From positions 1 through 50,817 of the IMG/VR virus record IMGVR_UViG_3300021092_002161: 50,817 bases of DNA; one strand, given 5' to 3'. The notes beneath the pieces are model-generated. The model had not been told where the DNA came from, did not search any database, and saw only the letters and a list, made by a program, of their open reading frames with translations. Shown here piece by piece: positions 126-25,729 of the stretch. This DNA is from a virus. How positions within the stretch are numbered: the stretch's first letter is position 1; each line of letters begins with the position of its first letter. A program made the translations under genes and the position numbers.

Positions 126-194
126 ATGAAAAGAATTATTAGATTAACTGAATCGGATCTTACAAGAATTGTAAGAAGAGTAATTAGCGAATCA
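126..194 (+). repeat. Class A leader repeat, copy 1 (partner 10491-10559)
   Basis: These 69 nt encode the class A leader and differ from 10491-10559 at about 7 positions counted by eye, while the downstream coding regions are unrelated. A shorter related copy starts the gene at 4651. The leader therefore behaves as a module. Confidence 0.7.
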
Positions 195-581
195 GAAAAA
201 CCAGCAGCAAAGGATTATTTTGTTAACGAAAATTACACTTCAATGCCAGGAGGAACAAACTTTTATGCGGTAACAAGTGTTGGTGCAGCAACCCCAATTA
301 ATGATGCAAAAGGTAAAAGTTTCCAAGTAACAGTTTCAGGTGTTATGTATTATAGTAATAATGGTACATGGCAAAAAACCGGTACCTTCAGTGAAACACT
401 ACAACACAGATGTGGTGCCAAATCTAACTTTTGGGCGGCAGAGTGGAATGGTGGTCTTCCAGAAGTAGATACTGGATCTGCAGGATATGTATCAAAAATA
501 GGTGGAGGATTAGAAACAGCGTCAAATACCTACTGTAATTCAAAAGGAGTTAAAAACCAATCAAGTATGGGAATTATATAA
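126..581 (+). CDS. Leader-tagged putative internal virion (cargo) protein
   Basis: The protein has 151 residues. The first 23 form a class A leader (MKRIIRLTESDL...RRVISE) nearly identical to those at 4651 and 10491. It is rich in Lys, Arg and Ile and ends in I-S-E, which fits the (I/L)-x-E cleavage rule of T4-type prohead proteases. The remainder is Gly/Ser/Thr-rich with two Cys, and I recognise no domain. A late-type element precedes it and a hairpin terminator follows. By analogy with the T4 internal proteins, the leader would direct packaging into the prohead. That role is inferred. Confidence 0.75.
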   Translation: MKRIIRLTESDLTRIVRRVISESEKPAAKDYFVNENYTSMPGGTNFYAVTSVGAATPINDAKGKSFQVTVSGVMYYSNNGTWQKTGTFSETLQHRCGAKSNFWAAEWNGGLPEVDTGSAGYVSKIGGGLETASNTYCNSKGVKNQSSMGII

Positions 582-4650: not shown

Positions 4651-5181
4651 ATGAAAAGAAAAATTAGATTAACGGAATCAGAACTTTATAGATTAATAAG
4701 AAGGGTTATATCTGAACAAACAACAAAACAAGTAACAGTAACTGTTGATTGTACTGCAAAAACATTAGACACAATGGCAATGACAGCACCAATGATTACT
4801 AAATACTGTACAGAGACGAAGGGTACAACAACTCAAACATTAGCTCAAGAATATAAAATGACTAGAAAGGATCAAATTATTTTAACAAGAGCCGAATTAG
4901 ATTCAATTGGCGCCTTTAGTGCTGAGGTTATAATAGATAGTTCTGATAAAGTTTCAGGTGTTTCTTTTAAAATGAAAAAAGAATTAACTAACCCGTCAAG
5001 TATGGGTGGTGGTATTGCACAACCTTTTTATTCTACCGCCGATGGTGCAGGACAAGGAACAGGTAGAGTTGCGGGTGGAGTAACACAAATTAAACCGTAT
5101 GTTGATGCGGGAGTAACGACTGCAGAAGCGGTAAGAAAATTAGGTGAAAAACAAGCTAAGGCTTCCCAAAGCTTTAAATAA
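4651..5181 (+). CDS. Leader-tagged putative internal virion protein (class A leader)
   Basis: The protein has 176 residues. It starts with MKRKIRLTESEL...RRVISEQ, a class A leader ending I-S-E. The body (VTVDCTAKTLD...) is a paralog of the preceding protein, from which it is separated by 9 nt, so the two are probably co-transcribed. The C-terminal third is Gly/Ala-rich (GGGIAQPF, GAGQGTGR). A bidirectional terminator follows. Packaging and injection are inferred from the leader; I have no function for the body. Confidence 0.75.
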   Translation: MKRKIRLTESELYRLIRRVISEQTTKQVTVTVDCTAKTLDTMAMTAPMITKYCTETKGTTTQTLAQEYKMTRKDQIILTRAELDSIGAFSAEVIIDSSDKVSGVSFKMKKELTNPSSMGGGIAQPFYSTADGAGQGTGRVAGGVTQIKPYVDAGVTTAEAVRKLGEKQAKASQSFK

Positions 5182-7265: not shown

Positions 7266-9482
7266 CTATTTTTTACGTTTTGTTGGTTTTTTTATTTTAA
7301 CTTCAGTTTTTTTATCTTTTTCGTTATATGATAAAATGAATTTTGAACCTTTTTCAGGGTTGTCACTAATTACTTTATCAGTAACCGCATCATCGACCCA
7401 CTTTTGAATGGTTCTTTTCAATATACGAGCACCGAATCTAGTGTCAGTACCAACACCTATAATGTGTTTTTTTAATGTCTCATCGACCTCCAATTCAAAA
7501 TCAATTAAAGAAACTCTTTCATACACTTTTTCAAGTTCCAAATCAACAATTTTTAATAGGTCGGTCTCATTAAGATCTTTAAAATAAATAATTTCATCAA
7601 ACCTATTTATAAATTCAGGTGCAAACTTTTTAAATAATTCTTTTTCTAATAGAGATTTTATCTCCTCTTCCTTTTTCTCAACTTTTGAATTTGTTGCAAA
7701 TCCAACACCTGTACCAAAATCTTGAACTATCTTTGTTCCAACATTAGATGTCATTAAAATAATACAGTTTTTGAAATTGATTTTTCTTCCGTGACCATCA
7801 GTTAAAAATCCTTCATCTAACATTTGTAAAAATACGTTAAATATTTCAGGATGTGCCTTTTCAATCTCATCTAACAAAATAACAGAATATGGTTTGTTTT
7901 TAATTTTATTTAAAAATGGTGATCCATCTTCATACCCAACATAGCCTGGTGATGTTCCTGTGAGTTTTGATGTTGCAATCTTATCTGAAAATTCACTCAT
8001 ATCTAATCTAATAAGTGCGTCTTCAGTATTAAACATATGTTTCGCTAATTGCTTAGCCAACTCAGTTTTACCAACACCTGAATTACCAATTAATAATCCA
8101 CTAAATATTGGTTTTTTAGGGTCATTTAATCCGACCTTATTTCTTTGTATTGCTTTTGATATTTTTGCAACTGCATCATCTTGACCAATAACTTTTGTTG
8201 ATAGCGTATCTTTGAGTGTTTTTAATTGTTCTGTCTCATCTGTTGATATTTTTGATATTGGTATTTTTGTAATAAGTGACGCGACATCATATACAATATC
8301 TTCTGTAACTTCTCTTTTGAATAAATTTCTATTTTTTTCAAATTCCGCCTTTTCTCTTTCTAAATCATTCAAAACTTTTCTTTCCTTATCTCTAAGATTT
8401 GCCGCTTCCTCGTATCTTTGACTGTTTATTACTATAACCTTTTCTTCTTTGATTTCTTGAGCCTGTCTTTTTAAATCTTCAATAATTTCAGGTAATTTTA
8501 TTTCAACTTGTGATCTAGCTCCAACCTCATCAATAATATCAAACGCCTTATCAGGAAACTCTCTATCTGTGATGTAACGGTCCGCTAACTCAACACATAG
8601 TTTTAATATATCATCACTATAAGTTACTTTATGGTGATCTTCATATCTATCTTTTGAATTTTGAAGTATCTGTAAGGTCTCTTCTTTTGTTGAAGGGTCC
8701 ACCATTACTTTTTGGAATCTCCTTTCAAGTGCACCATCTTTTTCAATATTTTTTCTATATTCTTCTAAAGTAGTTGCACCAATACATTGTAGTTCTCCTC
8801 TTGAAAGTGCAGGTTTAAATATATTTGAAGCATCCATCGATCCTGAGGCATTTCCCGCACCAATCATTGTATGGATTTCATCAATAAAAATTATAATATC
8901 GGGGTTATTGTATAATTCTTCCATAATCACTTTCATTCTTTCTTCAAATTGTCCTCTATATTTTGTTCCAGCAACAATTGATGTCATATCTAATGAAACA
9001 ATCCTTTTACCTGATAAATTTTGAGGACAATCACCCTCAAATATTTTCTTTGCTAAACCTTCAACAATTGCCGTTTTACCACAGTTATGTGAAACCACAC
9101 CATTTGATATGTATTTTCTTTCATTATCTAACACCTCAAGATCAAAAGTATTATGAACACCAATCTCTTCTTTCTCAATAACCTCATGTAGGTTATTATC
9201 TTCAAAATAAATTGAGTTTCCAACATTTAAATTTTTTAATCTTAACCAATATGAATCATTCATAAATTCAACAAAATCATTATCACTTGTTTGCCCAACT
9301 TCAACTAAATGGTCTTCAGATCCTGAAAGTTCAGACCCGTTTGATAGTTTTATTTTAAAACAATTTTTATTTTGTTTTTTATATAAATTACCAACAAGTT
9401 TATAACCCGACGGACTTTTAATTTTGTATGTCCCACCTTCGTTTTTTACAAGGTTAAAAAATTCTTCAATTTTAATTTTCAT
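7266..9482 (-). CDS. Split-intein C-precursor: IntC fused to the main part of a ClpC-like AAA+ unfoldase
   Basis: The protein has 738 residues. Residues 1-133 are an intein C-part: block B-like SGSEDHLV, block F-like VHNTFDLEV, block G NGVVSHN, then Cys134. From Cys134 the sequence is ClpC-like: GKTAIVEGLAKKI (rest of the D1 Walker A), YRGQFEER, FIDEIH Walker B near 200, a short middle domain with a UVR-type segment (YEEAANLRDKERKV) near 357, D2 Walker A GNSGVGKTE near 465, a VGF loop near 592 of the kind that docks ClpP, and a D2 C-terminal domain. It cannot act as a D1 ATPase alone because the P-loop Gly-Glu-Pro-Gly is on the other polypeptide. The Clp N-domain is absent. Confidence 0.9.
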   Translation of the reverse strand: MKIKIEEFFNLVKNEGGTYKIKSPSGYKLVGNLYKKQNKNCFKIKLSNGSELSGSEDHLVEVGQTSDNDFVEFMNDSYWLRLKNLNVGNSIYFEDNNLHEVIEKEEIGVHNTFDLEVLDNERKYISNGVVSHNCGKTAIVEGLAKKIFEGDCPQNLSGKRIVSLDMTSIVAGTKYRGQFEERMKVIMEELYNNPDIIIFIDEIHTMIGAGNASGSMDASNIFKPALSRGELQCIGATTLEEYRKNIEKDGALERRFQKVMVDPSTKEETLQILQNSKDRYEDHHKVTYSDDILKLCVELADRYITDREFPDKAFDIIDEVGARSQVEIKLPEIIEDLKRQAQEIKEEKVIVINSQRYEEAANLRDKERKVLNDLEREKAEFEKNRNLFKREVTEDIVYDVASLITKIPISKISTDETEQLKTLKDTLSTKVIGQDDAVAKISKAIQRNKVGLNDPKKPIFSGLLIGNSGVGKTELAKQLAKHMFNTEDALIRLDMSEFSDKIATSKLTGTSPGYVGYEDGSPFLNKIKNKPYSVILLDEIEKAHPEIFNVFLQMLDEGFLTDGHGRKINFKNCIILMTSNVGTKIVQDFGTGVGFATNSKVEKKEEEIKSLLEKELFKKFAPEFINRFDEIIYFKDLNETDLLKIVDLELEKVYERVSLIDFELEVDETLKKHIIGVGTDTRFGARILKRTIQKWVDDAVTDKVISDNPEKGSKFILSYNEKDKKTEVKIKKPTKRKK
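9084..9482 (-). other. Intein C-fragment (IntC, 133 residues)
   Basis: It runs from the initiator Met to the terminal Asn codon AAC at 9086-9084, preceded by His and followed by the Cys +1 codon TGT (9083-9081). The terminal His-Asn and Cys +1 are the standard splice-junction residues. There is no room for a homing endonuclease, so the intein is a mini-intein of about 157 residues in total. Confidence 0.88.
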
Positions 9483-9506
9483 ATTTTTTATTTAATTTTT
9501 TTTATT

Positions 9507-9800
9507 TCACATAGTTTCAATATTGTGACTATCTGCGTCAGAAACTTTTTCAATTTCAATCCAAGTATCGCCTAAAACACAACCTGGTTCACCTAATATA
9601 ATAGGGTTATTTTTCTTTCTTCTTGAAAGGATTTGTGCAATTCTATTAATCTCATTTTCTCTACCTACAACAGGATCTAATTTTCCTTCTTCAGCTAGTT
9701 TTATAAGGTCTCTTGAAAAGTTATCTAAAACAGGGGTTTTAGTTTTTGTTTCTGTTTGTTTATTTTTTGATTTTTCCATATCGTCAAATGATTCAATCAT
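9507..9800 (-). CDS. Split-intein N-precursor: ClpC-like N-terminal segment fused to a short IntN
   Basis: The protein has 97 residues. Residues 1-73 match the start of a Clp D1 domain ([45 protein letters not shown]) and stop within Walker A. Residues 74-97 begin Cys-Val-Leu-Gly-Asp-Thr, a canonical intein block A, and end at a TGA stop 24 nt before the start of the C-precursor. Splicing with the downstream product would restore GEPGCGKT and give a protein of about 678 residues. The N-terminal 17 residues are Lys/Thr-rich. The two genes are adjacent and same-strand, so they are probably co-transcribed. Confidence 0.9.
9510..9581 (-). other. Intein N-fragment (IntN, 24 residues)
   Basis: It starts with the Cys1 codon TGT (9581-9579), directly after the Gly codon of GEPG, and contains [13 protein letters not shown], the block A beta strand. 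At 24 residues it is far shorter than the roughly 100-residue IntN of classical split inteins. It resembles the atypical class known from phage metagenomes (AceL-TerL type). Confidence 0.88.
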
Positions 9801-9997: not shown

Positions 9998-10363
9998 ATG
10001 TTTAGTAGAAATTTTGAAAAATTATTTAATGAACTATGGTCATCAGATCCATTTTTTAATGGTGATAATTGGGAAAGAAAAAACTATAAGTCCGAAGATG
10101 GTAGTATTTCATTTACTTACATTACAAACAAACGAGGAGGACTGAATAAACAAGATGAAATATCATTATTAAAACAAAAACTTGATATTGCAGTTGATGA
10201 ACAAAATTTTGAGGAGGCGGTAGAACTCAGAGACAAAATTAAAAATTTAGAGAAAAATAAAGAAGAATTTACAAAACTTAATAAAGAACTAGATGAATGT
10301 TTAAAAAAACAAGATTTTGAAAATGCAATCAAATTAAGAGATAAAATTAGAAGTTTAAAATAA
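9998..10363 (+). CDS. Twin-UVR-motif protein, candidate modulator of the ClpC-like unfoldase
   Basis: The protein has 121 residues. Two copies of a UVR-type helical hairpin lie at residues 65-85 (VDEQNFEEAVELRDKIKNLE) and 101-121 (LKKQDFENAIKLRDKIRSLK). Such motifs occur in UvrB/UvrC and in McsA, which binds ClpC. The Cys4 zinc sites of McsA are absent. The first 50 residues are aromatic and unlike any domain I know. It sits divergently beside the ClpC-like genes with a shared upstream region, which favours a Clp-linked role over DNA repair. TATAAATA occurs at 9980-9987. Confidence 0.7.
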   Translation: MFSRNFEKLFNELWSSDPFFNGDNWERKNYKSEDGSISFTYITNKRGGLNKQDEISLLKQKLDIAVDEQNFEEAVELRDKIKNLEKNKEEFTKLNKELDECLKKQDFENAIKLRDKIRSLK

Positions 10364-10490: not shown

Positions 10491-10805
10491 ATGAAAAGAG
10501 TTATTAGATTAACAGAATCAGATCTTACAAGAATTGTAAGACGAGTTATTAAAGAATCAAAAGGGGTTATAAATGAGGCGTATGAGCCTGGTGCCACATT
10601 CGAAGTGGGCGAAATAACATACACTATTGAAGGTAGAGGCACTTTAGGACCTAATGGAGAACAATGTTTTTTCACAATGCAATTCAATGGTGGCGGTAAA
10701 AGATATGACGTAAGTGAAAAAACAATCAATAATATTCAAGATGCGAATTTAAAAGCGACTCTTCAAACTATTATGAGAACAGTAAAGAGAGAAATAGGTT
10801 GTTAA
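10491..10805 (+). CDS. Small leader-tagged putative internal virion protein
   Basis: The protein has 104 residues. The class A leader (MKRVIRLTESDL...RRVIKE) ends I-K-E, and a second I-N-E-A site follows seven residues later (GVINEAYE). The mature part, about 75 residues, is Gly-rich and beta-like (TIEGRGTLGPNGEQCFFTMQ) with two Cys, one at the C-terminus. Its stop overlaps the end of the convergent exported-protein gene by 4 nt. No function is recognised. Confidence 0.75.
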   Translation: MKRVIRLTESDLTRIVRRVIKESKGVINEAYEPGATFEVGEITYTIEGRGTLGPNGEQCFFTMQFNGGGKRYDVSEKTINNIQDANLKATLQTIMRTVKREIGC

Positions 10806-24999: not shown

Positions 25000-25036
25000 T
25001 TTTTTTATATTTACTATATGTTTTTTGGTAAAATGT

Positions 25037-25051
25037 ATTATATTTATAATT
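25037..25051 (+). promoter_or_regulatory. TATATTTATA-type element abutting the HNH gene
   Basis: ATTATATTTATAATT ends directly at the ATG at 25052. Any transcript starting at this element would be nearly leaderless. Confidence 0.35.
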
Positions 25052-25729
25052 ATGAAGAAAATAGAACTAATTAAAGAAGAAATAGATAAAATTTTAAAAA
25101 TGTATAATGAAGAATTATTTGGTTCTCACACTATTTCACAAAAAACGGGCATTAGTAAGCCAACAATCTTAAAGATTTTAAAAGAAAATGGTGTTATTAT
25201 GGGCCCATCAGGTAGAAGAAATATTGGGGGTAAAAAAGTTGCAGATAAAAAATGGAGGGACAAAAATAAAGATTATATGTGTAATAAATCCAAAAATTGG
25301 TACGAACAAAACAAAGAACACAGAAAACAATATTTAAAAGAATACCGTGAAAAAAACATAGACAAAATTCGTGAAACAAAAAAAAACTACGAAAAAATAC
25401 GTAAAGCGACTGATCCAATTTATAAACTAATATCCAACTTCAGAACGGCAATCTATCAAGTATTAAAAGAAAACAAAGTCCAAAAAAAAGGACACTATTT
25501 TGACATACTTAAATATTCGCCAGAAAACTTAGTAGGACATTTAGAAAGTAAATTTAAAGATAATATGACTTGGGACAATTATGGTGAATGGCACGTAGAC
25601 CATATAAAACCAATATCATCGTTTCAAATAACAGAAATTGGTGATAAAGAATTTATGTCTTGTTGGTCGTTAGACAACCTTCAACCATTGTGGAATAATG
25701 ATAATATCCGAAAATCAAATAAATTATAA
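25052..25729 (+). CDS. HNH endonuclease (homing-type)
   Basis: The protein has 225 residues from ATG 25052; a start nine codons upstream is possible. A helix-turn-helix-like segment (GSHTISQKTGISKPTILKIL) is followed by a Lys-rich linker and a C-terminal HNH domain: WHVDHIKPISSF, then CWSLDNLQPLW and NDNIRKSNK. The second and third motifs fit His/Asn metal binding. It is free-standing and sits right behind the capsid terminator, a typical landing place for phage homing endonucleases. Confidence 0.88.
   Translation: MKKIELIKEEIDKILKMYNEELFGSHTISQKTGISKPTILKILKENGVIMGPSGRRNIGGKKVADKKWRDKNKDYMCNKSKNWYEQNKEHRKQYLKEYREKNIDKIRETKKNYEKIRKATDPIYKLISNFRTAIYQVLKENKVQKKGHYFDILKYSPENLVGHLESKFKDNMTWDNYGEWHVDHIKPISSFQITEIGDKEFMSCWSLDNLQPLWNNDNIRKSNKL

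What the first reader, a model, noticed from the sequence alone, without database searches (positions are those of the whole stretch)
7266..9800. Atypically split intein (24-residue IntN) inside Walker A of a phage ClpC-like unfoldase
One polypeptide ends GEPG plus a 24-residue intein start (Cys-Val-Leu-Gly-Asp-Thr...). The next begins with a 133-residue intein end (NGVVSHN) followed by Cys-GKTAIVEG. Splicing rebuilds GEPGCGKT exactly, so D1 ATPase activity depends on trans-splicing. The very short IntN resembles the rare AceL-TerL/VidaL class known from phage metagenomes. A ClpC host gene is, as far as I recall, not a described site for this class. The split makes unfoldase activation depend on two products and could act as a timing control.
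Basis: partly seen in the sequence, partly recalled or inferred. Interest (0 to 1): 0.92.

Follow-up and report, generated by a model that had tools for sequence, protein, structure and literature searches.

The report
Split intein interrupts phage ClpC gene
A bacterial virus carries its protein-unfolding machine (a ClpC-like protein) as two separate pieces whose ends look like a self-splicing tag that should join them inside the ATP-binding motif, and its relatives suggest that this is a mobile genetic element that has recently lost its DNA-cutting gene.

Summary
On the minus strand a 97-aa ORF (9507-9800) ends GEPG plus a 24-aa IntN; 24 bases on, a 738-aa ORF (7266-9482) starts with a 133-aa IntC ending SHN, then CGKT. 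Splicing would give a 678-aa ClpC-like unfoldase with an intact D1 Walker A. Seven records of two phages have the split; 74 of the 80 homologous loci fetched are uninterrupted. The predicted intein fold is nearest to the atypically split VidaL intein (Z 22.4). I count 21 distinct alleles at this ClpC site: ten with an uninterrupted endonuclease-like ORF (about 390 aa) between IntN and IntC, five with a broken copy, five (window included) with only a short gap, one contiguous intein. The window's intein differs from an endonuclease-bearing sister by 4/369 bases, the adjoining N-extein by 22/219 (P = 5e-7), which suggests recent horizontal movement, then endonuclease loss. So this is best read as a mobile split intein derived from a "fractured gene" arrangement, in a host gene for which I found no report, rather than a timing device. 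Trans-splicing is inferred, not shown. New member of a known kind, with an unusually complete set of states at one site.

The parts
9507..9800 (-). ORF1, 97 aa: N-terminal part of the ClpC-like D1 domain plus IntN
   Evidence: phrog_4871 'ATP-dependent protease' E 1.4e-17 over residues 9-73
9582..9800 (-). N-extein, 73 aa, ends ...[10 protein letters not shown] (first half of Walker A)
9510..9581 (-). IntN, 24 aa, begins with Cys1; stop TGA at 9507-9509
   Evidence: 24 aa in 16 of 20 split alleles at this site
9483..9506 (-). 24-nt A/T-only gap; in endonuclease-bearing relatives about 1.2 kb with an endonuclease-like gene lies between the halves
7266..9482 (-). ORF2, 738 aa: IntC plus the rest of D1 and D2 of the ClpC-like unfoldase
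   Evidence: Pfam AAA, AAA_lid_9, AAA_2, ClpB_D2-small; phrog_4871 1.5e-199
9084..9482 (-). IntC, 133 aa, with block B His and C-terminal His-Asn (SHN)
   Evidence: fold model
7269..9083 (-). C-extein, 605 aa, begins CGKTAIVEG (second half of Walker A, +1 Cys)
   Evidence: 74 of the 80 homologous loci fetched are uninterrupted here

Best explanation
It is a natural split intein with an atypical (N-proximal, S1-like) split site, inserted between the fourth and fifth residues of the motif GEPG|CGKT, the D1 Walker A of a phage ClpC-like unfoldase. Shown from sequence: the two-ORF anatomy; Cys1, block-B His, penultimate His, terminal Asn and +1 Cys; an intein fold by prediction; empty, endonuclease-bearing, decayed, bare-gap and contiguous alleles at the same site. 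Inferred: IntN (24 aa) and IntC (133 aa) associate after translation, form one Hint domain, splice in trans by the standard class 1 pathway, and release a 678-aa ClpC-like protein with an intact D1 ATP site; before splicing neither fragment has a whole D1 P-loop. The element is best read as a selfish mobile unit: an endonuclease-like gene between the halves (kept in relatives, lost in the window) spread the intein between phages into intein-free ClpC genes, and the split persists because trans-splicing makes it nearly harmless.
For: Anatomy. Other records with the same split. Empty alleles at 74 of 80 loci fetched (the best 80 of 91 found), nearest empty relative 98% identical in the C-extein columns. 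Intein homology; contiguous relative L124 over both NCBIfam intein cut-offs. Fold model pLDDT 91, pTM 0.84; VidaL best in Foldseek (E 3.8e-11) and VIA (Z 22.4, rmsd 1.5, 139 aligned; next 19.4). H91, D147, H165 and N166 of alignment A5 invariant in its 17 rows (17 of the 21 alleles). The +1 residue is Cys (16) or Thr (4) in the 20 distinct intein-bearing C-exteins, never Val; Val in 10 of 54 distinct empty ones. Endonuclease-like ORF between the halves, uninterrupted in 10 of 21 alleles; the C-terminal domain of its model matches I-Bth0305I first. Intein 4/369 against N-extein 22/219 differences to L088, P = 5.4e-7. Intein presence needs at least 8 changes on the C-extein tree, 5 forced by well-supported branches. 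dN/dS 0.077 for the intein and 0.034 for the C-extein between window and L003, with dS above 1.
Against: No splicing was or could be tested. Pfam Intein_splicing is below its cut-off and the IntC alone just below the NCBIfam cut-offs. The nuclease assignment rests on a predicted fold: Foldseek E 0.14, VIA Z 8.7, which is tied with two mitoribosomal chains (8.3, 8.2) and Vsr (8.1); pTM of that model 0.46; no relevant Pfam or PDB sequence match. Block B of the window reads S-E-D-H where many inteins have T-x-x-H (from memory). Not all allele pairs show the homing pattern: L089-L091 are 57% identical in the intein and 72% in the C-extein. Homing is inferred, not observed.
Confidence: 0.9

Rival explanations
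1. The split is a regulatory device: unfoldase activation depends on two products and thus on timing or dose.
For: Unspliced halves cannot hold a whole D1 Walker A. In 9 of 11 endonuclease-bearing leaders examined a promoter-like ATATTTAT lies between the halves, with a predicted hairpin in the 9 that were folded, so the IntC half could be made at another time there.
Against: In the window the halves are 24 nt apart on one strand and the motif is absent. 74 of the 80 related loci fetched do without the intein. Patchy presence and the divergence pattern against L088 fit a mobile element.
Confidence: 0.07
2. Two dead gene fragments: a broken ClpC whose intein no longer splices.
For: No experimental proof of splicing; Pfam score below cut-off; the endonuclease gene is broken in five alleles.
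Against: Exteins and intein keep low dN/dS between window and L003 (0.034-0.077, dS above 1), the splice residues are invariant in the 17 rows aligned, and the frames are intact in the records of two diverged phages, except that L002 has a shorter C-extein frame (712 against 741 codons, one base change).
Confidence: 0.05
3. Assembly or sequencing artefact, or an in-frame read-through of a contiguous intein.
For: The window's gap is in frame with both ORFs, with one TGA and one TAA in between.
Against: Same break in 7 records; in L003-L005 the gap is 29 nt and out of frame; 15 other alleles have an endonuclease-like gene or a remnant of one between IntN and IntC.
Confidence: 0.01
4. A two-subunit ATPase working without ligation, the fragments assembling non-covalently.
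For: Genes-in-pieces that keep function unjoined exist (a ribonucleotide reductase case is cited in a passage of PMC10448857).
Against: The break carries a whole intein with the splice residues conserved in the alleles aligned and Cys or Thr at +1 wherever it was seen, which non-covalent assembly would not need.
Confidence: 0.02

Closest known systems
VidaL intein (PDB 6vgv), natural atypically split intein
   Same: Best match of the predicted intein fold (Z 22.4, rmsd 1.5 A over 139 residues) and of the IntC profile (1.3e-10); split after the first strands and before the first long helix (model; S1 position of VidaL from passages of PMC13014065).
   Different: About 22% identical; IntN 24 aa here, 16 aa in VidaL (PMC13014065 passages); host here is a ClpC-like unfoldase.
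AceL-TerL / GOS-TerL / Cat split inteins
   Same: Very short IntN (25, 37 and 30 aa; passages of PMC13014065 and PMC11766414); AceL-TerL and GOS-TerL are described there as cysteine-dependent.
   Different: Named for the terminase TerL; AceL-TerL and GOS-TerL are split after the first helix (S2); CatC matches the IntC profile weakly (7.5e-5).
Fractured genes with split inteins and Vsr-related endonucleases (Dassa et al. 2009; abstract recalled, paper not held)
   Same: Host gene broken by a split intein; in relatives a free-standing endonuclease-like gene between the halves whose predicted nuclease domain resembles I-Bth0305I and Vsr; possible control elements arriving with it.
   Different: The window has no endonuclease gene; the host is an unfoldase, whereas the hosts recalled from that abstract are DNA synthesis and repair enzymes.
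gp41-1 intein (PDB 6qaz, 6riz)
   Same: Sequence match of IntC (3.4e-6; 2.9e-10 with the profile); phage fractured-gene origin (recalled).
   Different: Canonical split near the C-terminal end (recalled), different host.

Membership tests
Inteins (Hint fold, class 1) | Hint/intein fold | tested here: met
   AF2 model pLDDT 91, pTM 0.84; top Foldseek and VIA matches are inteins
Inteins (Hint fold, class 1) | Cys1 or Ser1, block B His, penultimate His and terminal Asn, +1 Cys/Ser/Thr | tested here: met
   Cys1 in the 20 IntNs and L124; H91, H165, N166 invariant in the 17 rows of A5; +1 Cys in 16 and Thr in 4 of 20 distinct C-exteins. That these are the catalytic positions is knowledge of the family, not a call
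Inteins (Hint fold, class 1) | Score over a curated intein profile cut-off | tested here: inconclusive
   Window IntC below the cut-offs of Pfam (21.7 of 35.8 bits) and NCBIfam (22.9 of 24.5 and 14.9 of 15.6 bits); contiguous relative L124 over both NCBIfam cut-offs (29.4 and 25.7 bits) but below Pfam's (23.8)
Inteins (Hint fold, class 1) | Protein splicing activity | not testable with these tools
   needs expression of both halves
Atypically split inteins | IntN of 15-37 aa and IntC on separate ORFs | tested here: met
   IntN 24 aa; 18-26 aa across 20 split alleles; range from passages of PMC13014065
Fractured genes (split intein with free-standing endonuclease gene) | Endonuclease gene between the two halves | tested here: not met
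   Window gap is 24 nt. An uninterrupted endonuclease-like ORF is there in 10 of 21 alleles at the same site and a broken one in 5, so the window is a derivative, not itself a full example
EDxHD / Vsr-related homing endonucleases (relatives only) | Vsr-like nuclease fold | tested here: inconclusive
   I-Bth0305I 3r3p first (Foldseek prob 1.00 but E 0.14; VIA Z 8.7, 88 aligned), Vsr 1cw0 Z 8.1, but two mitoribosomal chains at 8.3 and 8.2; no relevant sequence match
EDxHD / Vsr-related homing endonucleases (relatives only) | EDxHD catalytic motif and site-specific cleavage | not tested
   motif not mapped residue by residue; cleavage needs an assay
ClpC/Hsp100 unfoldases | Two AAA modules with lid and D2-small domain | tested here: met
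   AAA 1.1e-19, AAA_lid_9 8.8e-27, AAA_2 1.9e-54, ClpB_D2-small 1.2e-15; phrog_4871
ClpC/Hsp100 unfoldases | N-terminal Clp_N domain | tested here: not met
   ORF1 has no Clp_N match and its N-extein is 73 aa; Clp_N is present in the distant allele L094. 'ClpC-like' is used here for the AAA core only

The most novel reading that the evidence does not exclude
An endonuclease gene that lodged in the first loop of an intein created a naturally split protein, and deletion of that gene has both left the split behind (more than once) and once re-fused the intein into a contiguous one: reversible fission and fusion of a protein driven by a selfish gene, caught in all its states at one site of one gene. 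A further, weaker reading: the Cys in the Walker A of most intein-free relatives (64 of the 74 empty loci fetched) is itself the footprint of earlier intein visits.
Probability: 0.45. Interest if true: 0.72.

Novelty: new member of a known kind. Interest (0 to 1): 0.62.

Why it matters
It adds an AAA+ protein-unfolding machine to the hosts of naturally split, very-short-IntN inteins, and gives some twenty natural variants (Cys+1 and Thr+1, split and contiguous) that could be tested as ligation tools. The allele series lets the origin and loss of split inteins be traced at one site, which bears on how proteins become split genes. Splice-dead mutants would test directly whether such phages need this ClpC.

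Tried and rejected
Pfam Intein_splicing over the window's own record: 0 of 1. For the endonuclease-like protein, Pfam and the PDB gave no relevant sequence match, PHROGs nothing for L088, a weak 'Holliday junction resolvase' match for L091 and L094 (phrog_9019, 5e-5 and 4e-5), and families of unknown function for L097. GTDB genome contigs: 107 candidate stretches, 0 relatives of IntC, from one degenerate pattern, so no proof of absence. Named phage records: IntC matched 277 records, every one under 60% identity, most of the 20 listed being terminase genes or unannotated; the best is an uncultured phage, 33.6%, in a PhoH-like gene judged by eye. The two best ClpC matches there have an intact GEPGVGKS site. 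No tRNA genes in the window.

Considered and rejected: sequencing error or read-through; a purely regulatory split; dead fragments. I first took TATTTATA for a T4 late promoter read backwards; counting showed ATATTTAT enriched upstream of ORFs on the sense strand (12 of 61 ORFs of 100 aa or more on both strands, spurious ones included; 0.8 expected from its overall frequency without allowing for AT-rich upstream DNA; its reverse complement 1 of 61). I call it promoter-like only. L132 and L133, which keep the endonuclease ORF, lack the exact motif, and the remnant allele L112 has a near match. Of the 9 hairpins folded, 4 have z between -1.3 and -2.0, the rest between -3.3 and -5.5, against mononucleotide shuffles. 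The C-extein tree was a quick one with 22 of 71 inner branches weak and long branches at L132 and L133; L088 and L118 are not in it. The intein tree puts the contiguous L124 beside endonuclease-bearing alleles with moderate support (89/91); 10 of 17 inner branches are weak and L088 was left out because its contig ends inside IntC. Re-fusion is therefore a suggestion. L122 and L123 count as two alleles but have nearly the same IntC. L086's break looks like a single frameshift and could be a sequencing error. Parts of the outputs were cut; the counts rest. Dassa et al. 2009 could not be read; what I say of it is recalled. 'No report of ClpC' rests on listings (12 of 80 listed; 11 of 12 listed) in an open-licence library; of papers I saw passages only, no whole text. 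ClpP inteins are in print (PMC5784728 passages).
Full report
WHAT IS THERE. The window is a 50,817-base virus record with T4-type Gp23 capsid, portal and terminase families. On the minus strand ORF1 (9507-9800, 97 aa) ends ...[10 protein letters not shown] followed by [24 protein letters not shown] and TGA. After 24 A/T-only bases, ORF2 (7266-9482, 738 aa) starts with 133 aa ending NGVVSHN, then CGKTAIVEG. Removing 24 + 133 aa leaves 73 + 605 = 678 aa of a protein with two AAA modules, best described by phrog_4871, ATP-dependent protease (1.5e-199). The junction falls inside the D1 Walker A.

NOT AN ARTEFACT. A scan of IMG/VR with ORF2 found 91 relatives and kept the best 80. Six carry the same split: L001, L002 and L048 (1, 2 and 1 differences over 2532 bases compared; L002 has a shorter C-extein frame) and the diverged L003-L005 (IntC 81% identical, gap 29 nt, out of frame). 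The other 74 are uninterrupted at the site: 64 have Cys and 10 have Val in the fifth position of the motif. The nearest empty relative is 98% identical to the window over the 416 columns of the tree.

AN INTEIN BY SEQUENCE AND FOLD. IntC, or joined IntN+IntC, matches gp41-1 (3e-6 to 7e-5) and VidaL (0.005-0.007) in the PDB. A profile of 8 IntCs gives VidaL 1.3e-10, gp41-1 2.9e-10, CatC 7.5e-5. Pfam Intein_splicing is hit below its cut-off. The contiguous relative L124 passes both NCBIfam intein cut-offs; the window's IntC alone just misses them. An AlphaFold2 model of the window's intein, read through the gap and aligned with 16 other rows, has pLDDT 91 with a low-confidence stretch at the split. 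VidaL is first by Foldseek (E 3.8e-11) and by VIA (Z 22.4; next 19.4). The split lies after the first strands and before the first long helix, the S1 position as described for VidaL in passages of PMC13014065. H91, D147, H165 and N166 of that alignment are invariant in its 17 rows.

A MOBILE ELEMENT WITH A HISTORY. Two scans with IntC profiles gave 17 and 53 loci, overlapping. Reading them I count 21 distinct alleles at the same ClpC site, the window's included. Ten have an uninterrupted ORF of 389-408 codons, stop to stop, between IntN and IntC (L088, L089, L091, L094, L108, L116, L117, L125, L132, L133). Five have a frameshifted or shortened copy (L086, L112, L122, L123, L128). Five have only 6-29 bases (window, L084, L113, L115, L118). 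One, L124, is a contiguous 151-aa intein. IntN is 24 aa in 16 of the 20 split alleles, 26 in three, 18 in one (L128). The +1 residue is Cys or, in L094, L128, L132 and L133, Thr; L088's contig ends before it. The endonuclease-like protein has no relevant Pfam or PDB sequence match. In its predicted model (pLDDT 82, pTM 0.46) the C-terminal domain matches the homing endonuclease I-Bth0305I first (prob 1.00 but E 0.14; Z 8.7), with two mitoribosomal chains (8.3, 8.2) and Vsr (8.1) close behind. The 9 leaders folded (8 alleles with the whole ORF, and the frameshifted L086) have ATATTTAT right after the IntN stop and a predicted hairpin before the endonuclease start, z from -1.3 to -5.5; L132 and L133 lack the exact motif. 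ATATTTAT lies within 60 bases upstream of 12 of 61 window ORFs of 100 aa or more, against 0.8 expected from its overall frequency, the major capsid gene among them.

EVIDENCE FOR HOMING. L088, a sister with the endonuclease ORF, has an IntN identical to the window's in 72 of 72 bases and 293 of 297 IntC bases (its contig ends there), yet 22 of 219 N-extein bases differ; Fisher P = 5.4e-7. L086 and L089 share 80% of the intein but 61% of the C-extein, which suggests movement between diverged ClpC genes; other pairs do not show this (L089-L091: 57% and 72%). On a tree of 74 distinct C-exteins intein presence needs at least 8 changes, 5 of them forced by well-supported branches. Sampling was by similarity to the window, so these are not population frequencies. 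dN/dS between window and L003 is 0.077 (intein), 0.034 (C-extein), 0.039 (N-extein), with dS above 1, so rough.

MECHANISM. Most likely the fragments meet after translation, IntN docks on IntC, and standard splicing joins the exteins. This is inference. The selfish reading explains the place (a conserved P-loop, a known preference of inteins: passages of PMC5050341), the patchy presence, and the gene between the halves. Control of timing is not excluded for endonuclease-bearing alleles but has no support in the window.

RELATION TO WHAT IS KNOWN. It works like, and by fold and anatomy belongs with, the atypically split inteins (VidaL, AceL-TerL: passages). The arrangement in its relatives is that of the fractured genes of Dassa et al. 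2009 (recalled; not held); the window itself lacks the endonuclease and is a derivative. I found no paper reporting a ClpC intein (listings). Related inteins with an endonuclease-like ORF also break other P-loop genes, by eye an SbcC/gp46-like gene (L097 and kin) and a PhoH-like gene (L151). The verdict is a new member of a known kind, of good interest because one site shows every state from empty to endonuclease-bearing to bare split to contiguous.

Noticed in passing
window, upstream of ORFs at e.g. 126, 4057, 11604, 18732, 20464, 23151: The octamer ATATTTAT lies within 60 nt upstream of 12 of 61 ORFs of 100 aa or more (0.8 expected from its overall frequency; reverse complement 1 of 61): a candidate promoter of this phage, also present before the endonuclease-like genes in relatives.
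   Followed up: partly
window 126-581, 4651-5181, 10491-10805 (+): Three otherwise different small proteins share an N-terminal leader MKR.IRLTES.L; two others (4057, 5931) share MKNILSSLNE..KRRILEMH. Perhaps capsid-targeting leaders cut by a head protease (a guess from T4, recalled).
   Followed up: no
window 9998-10363 (+): A 121-aa protein with UVR motifs (PF02151, 2.9e-16) is divergently placed next to the split ClpC; possibly an adaptor like McsA (guess).
   Followed up: no
L097, L140, L141, L142, L146, L148: Related IntC-bearing ORFs in an SbcC/gp46-like ATPase, split next to GGK|T of its P-loop; several have an endonuclease-like ORF between the halves (host named by eye).
   Followed up: partly
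L151 (LR756500.1): A huge uncultured phage has a related split intein with an endonuclease-like ORF in a PhoH-like gene at GKAG|TGKT (host named by eye).
   Followed up: partly
L088:2690-3421: A further ORF, GIY-YIG-like by eye, lies between the UVR gene and ORF1 in the endonuclease-bearing sister and is absent from the window.
   Followed up: no
window 25025-25729 (+): An ORF that looks HNH-like by eye follows the major capsid gene.
   Followed up: no
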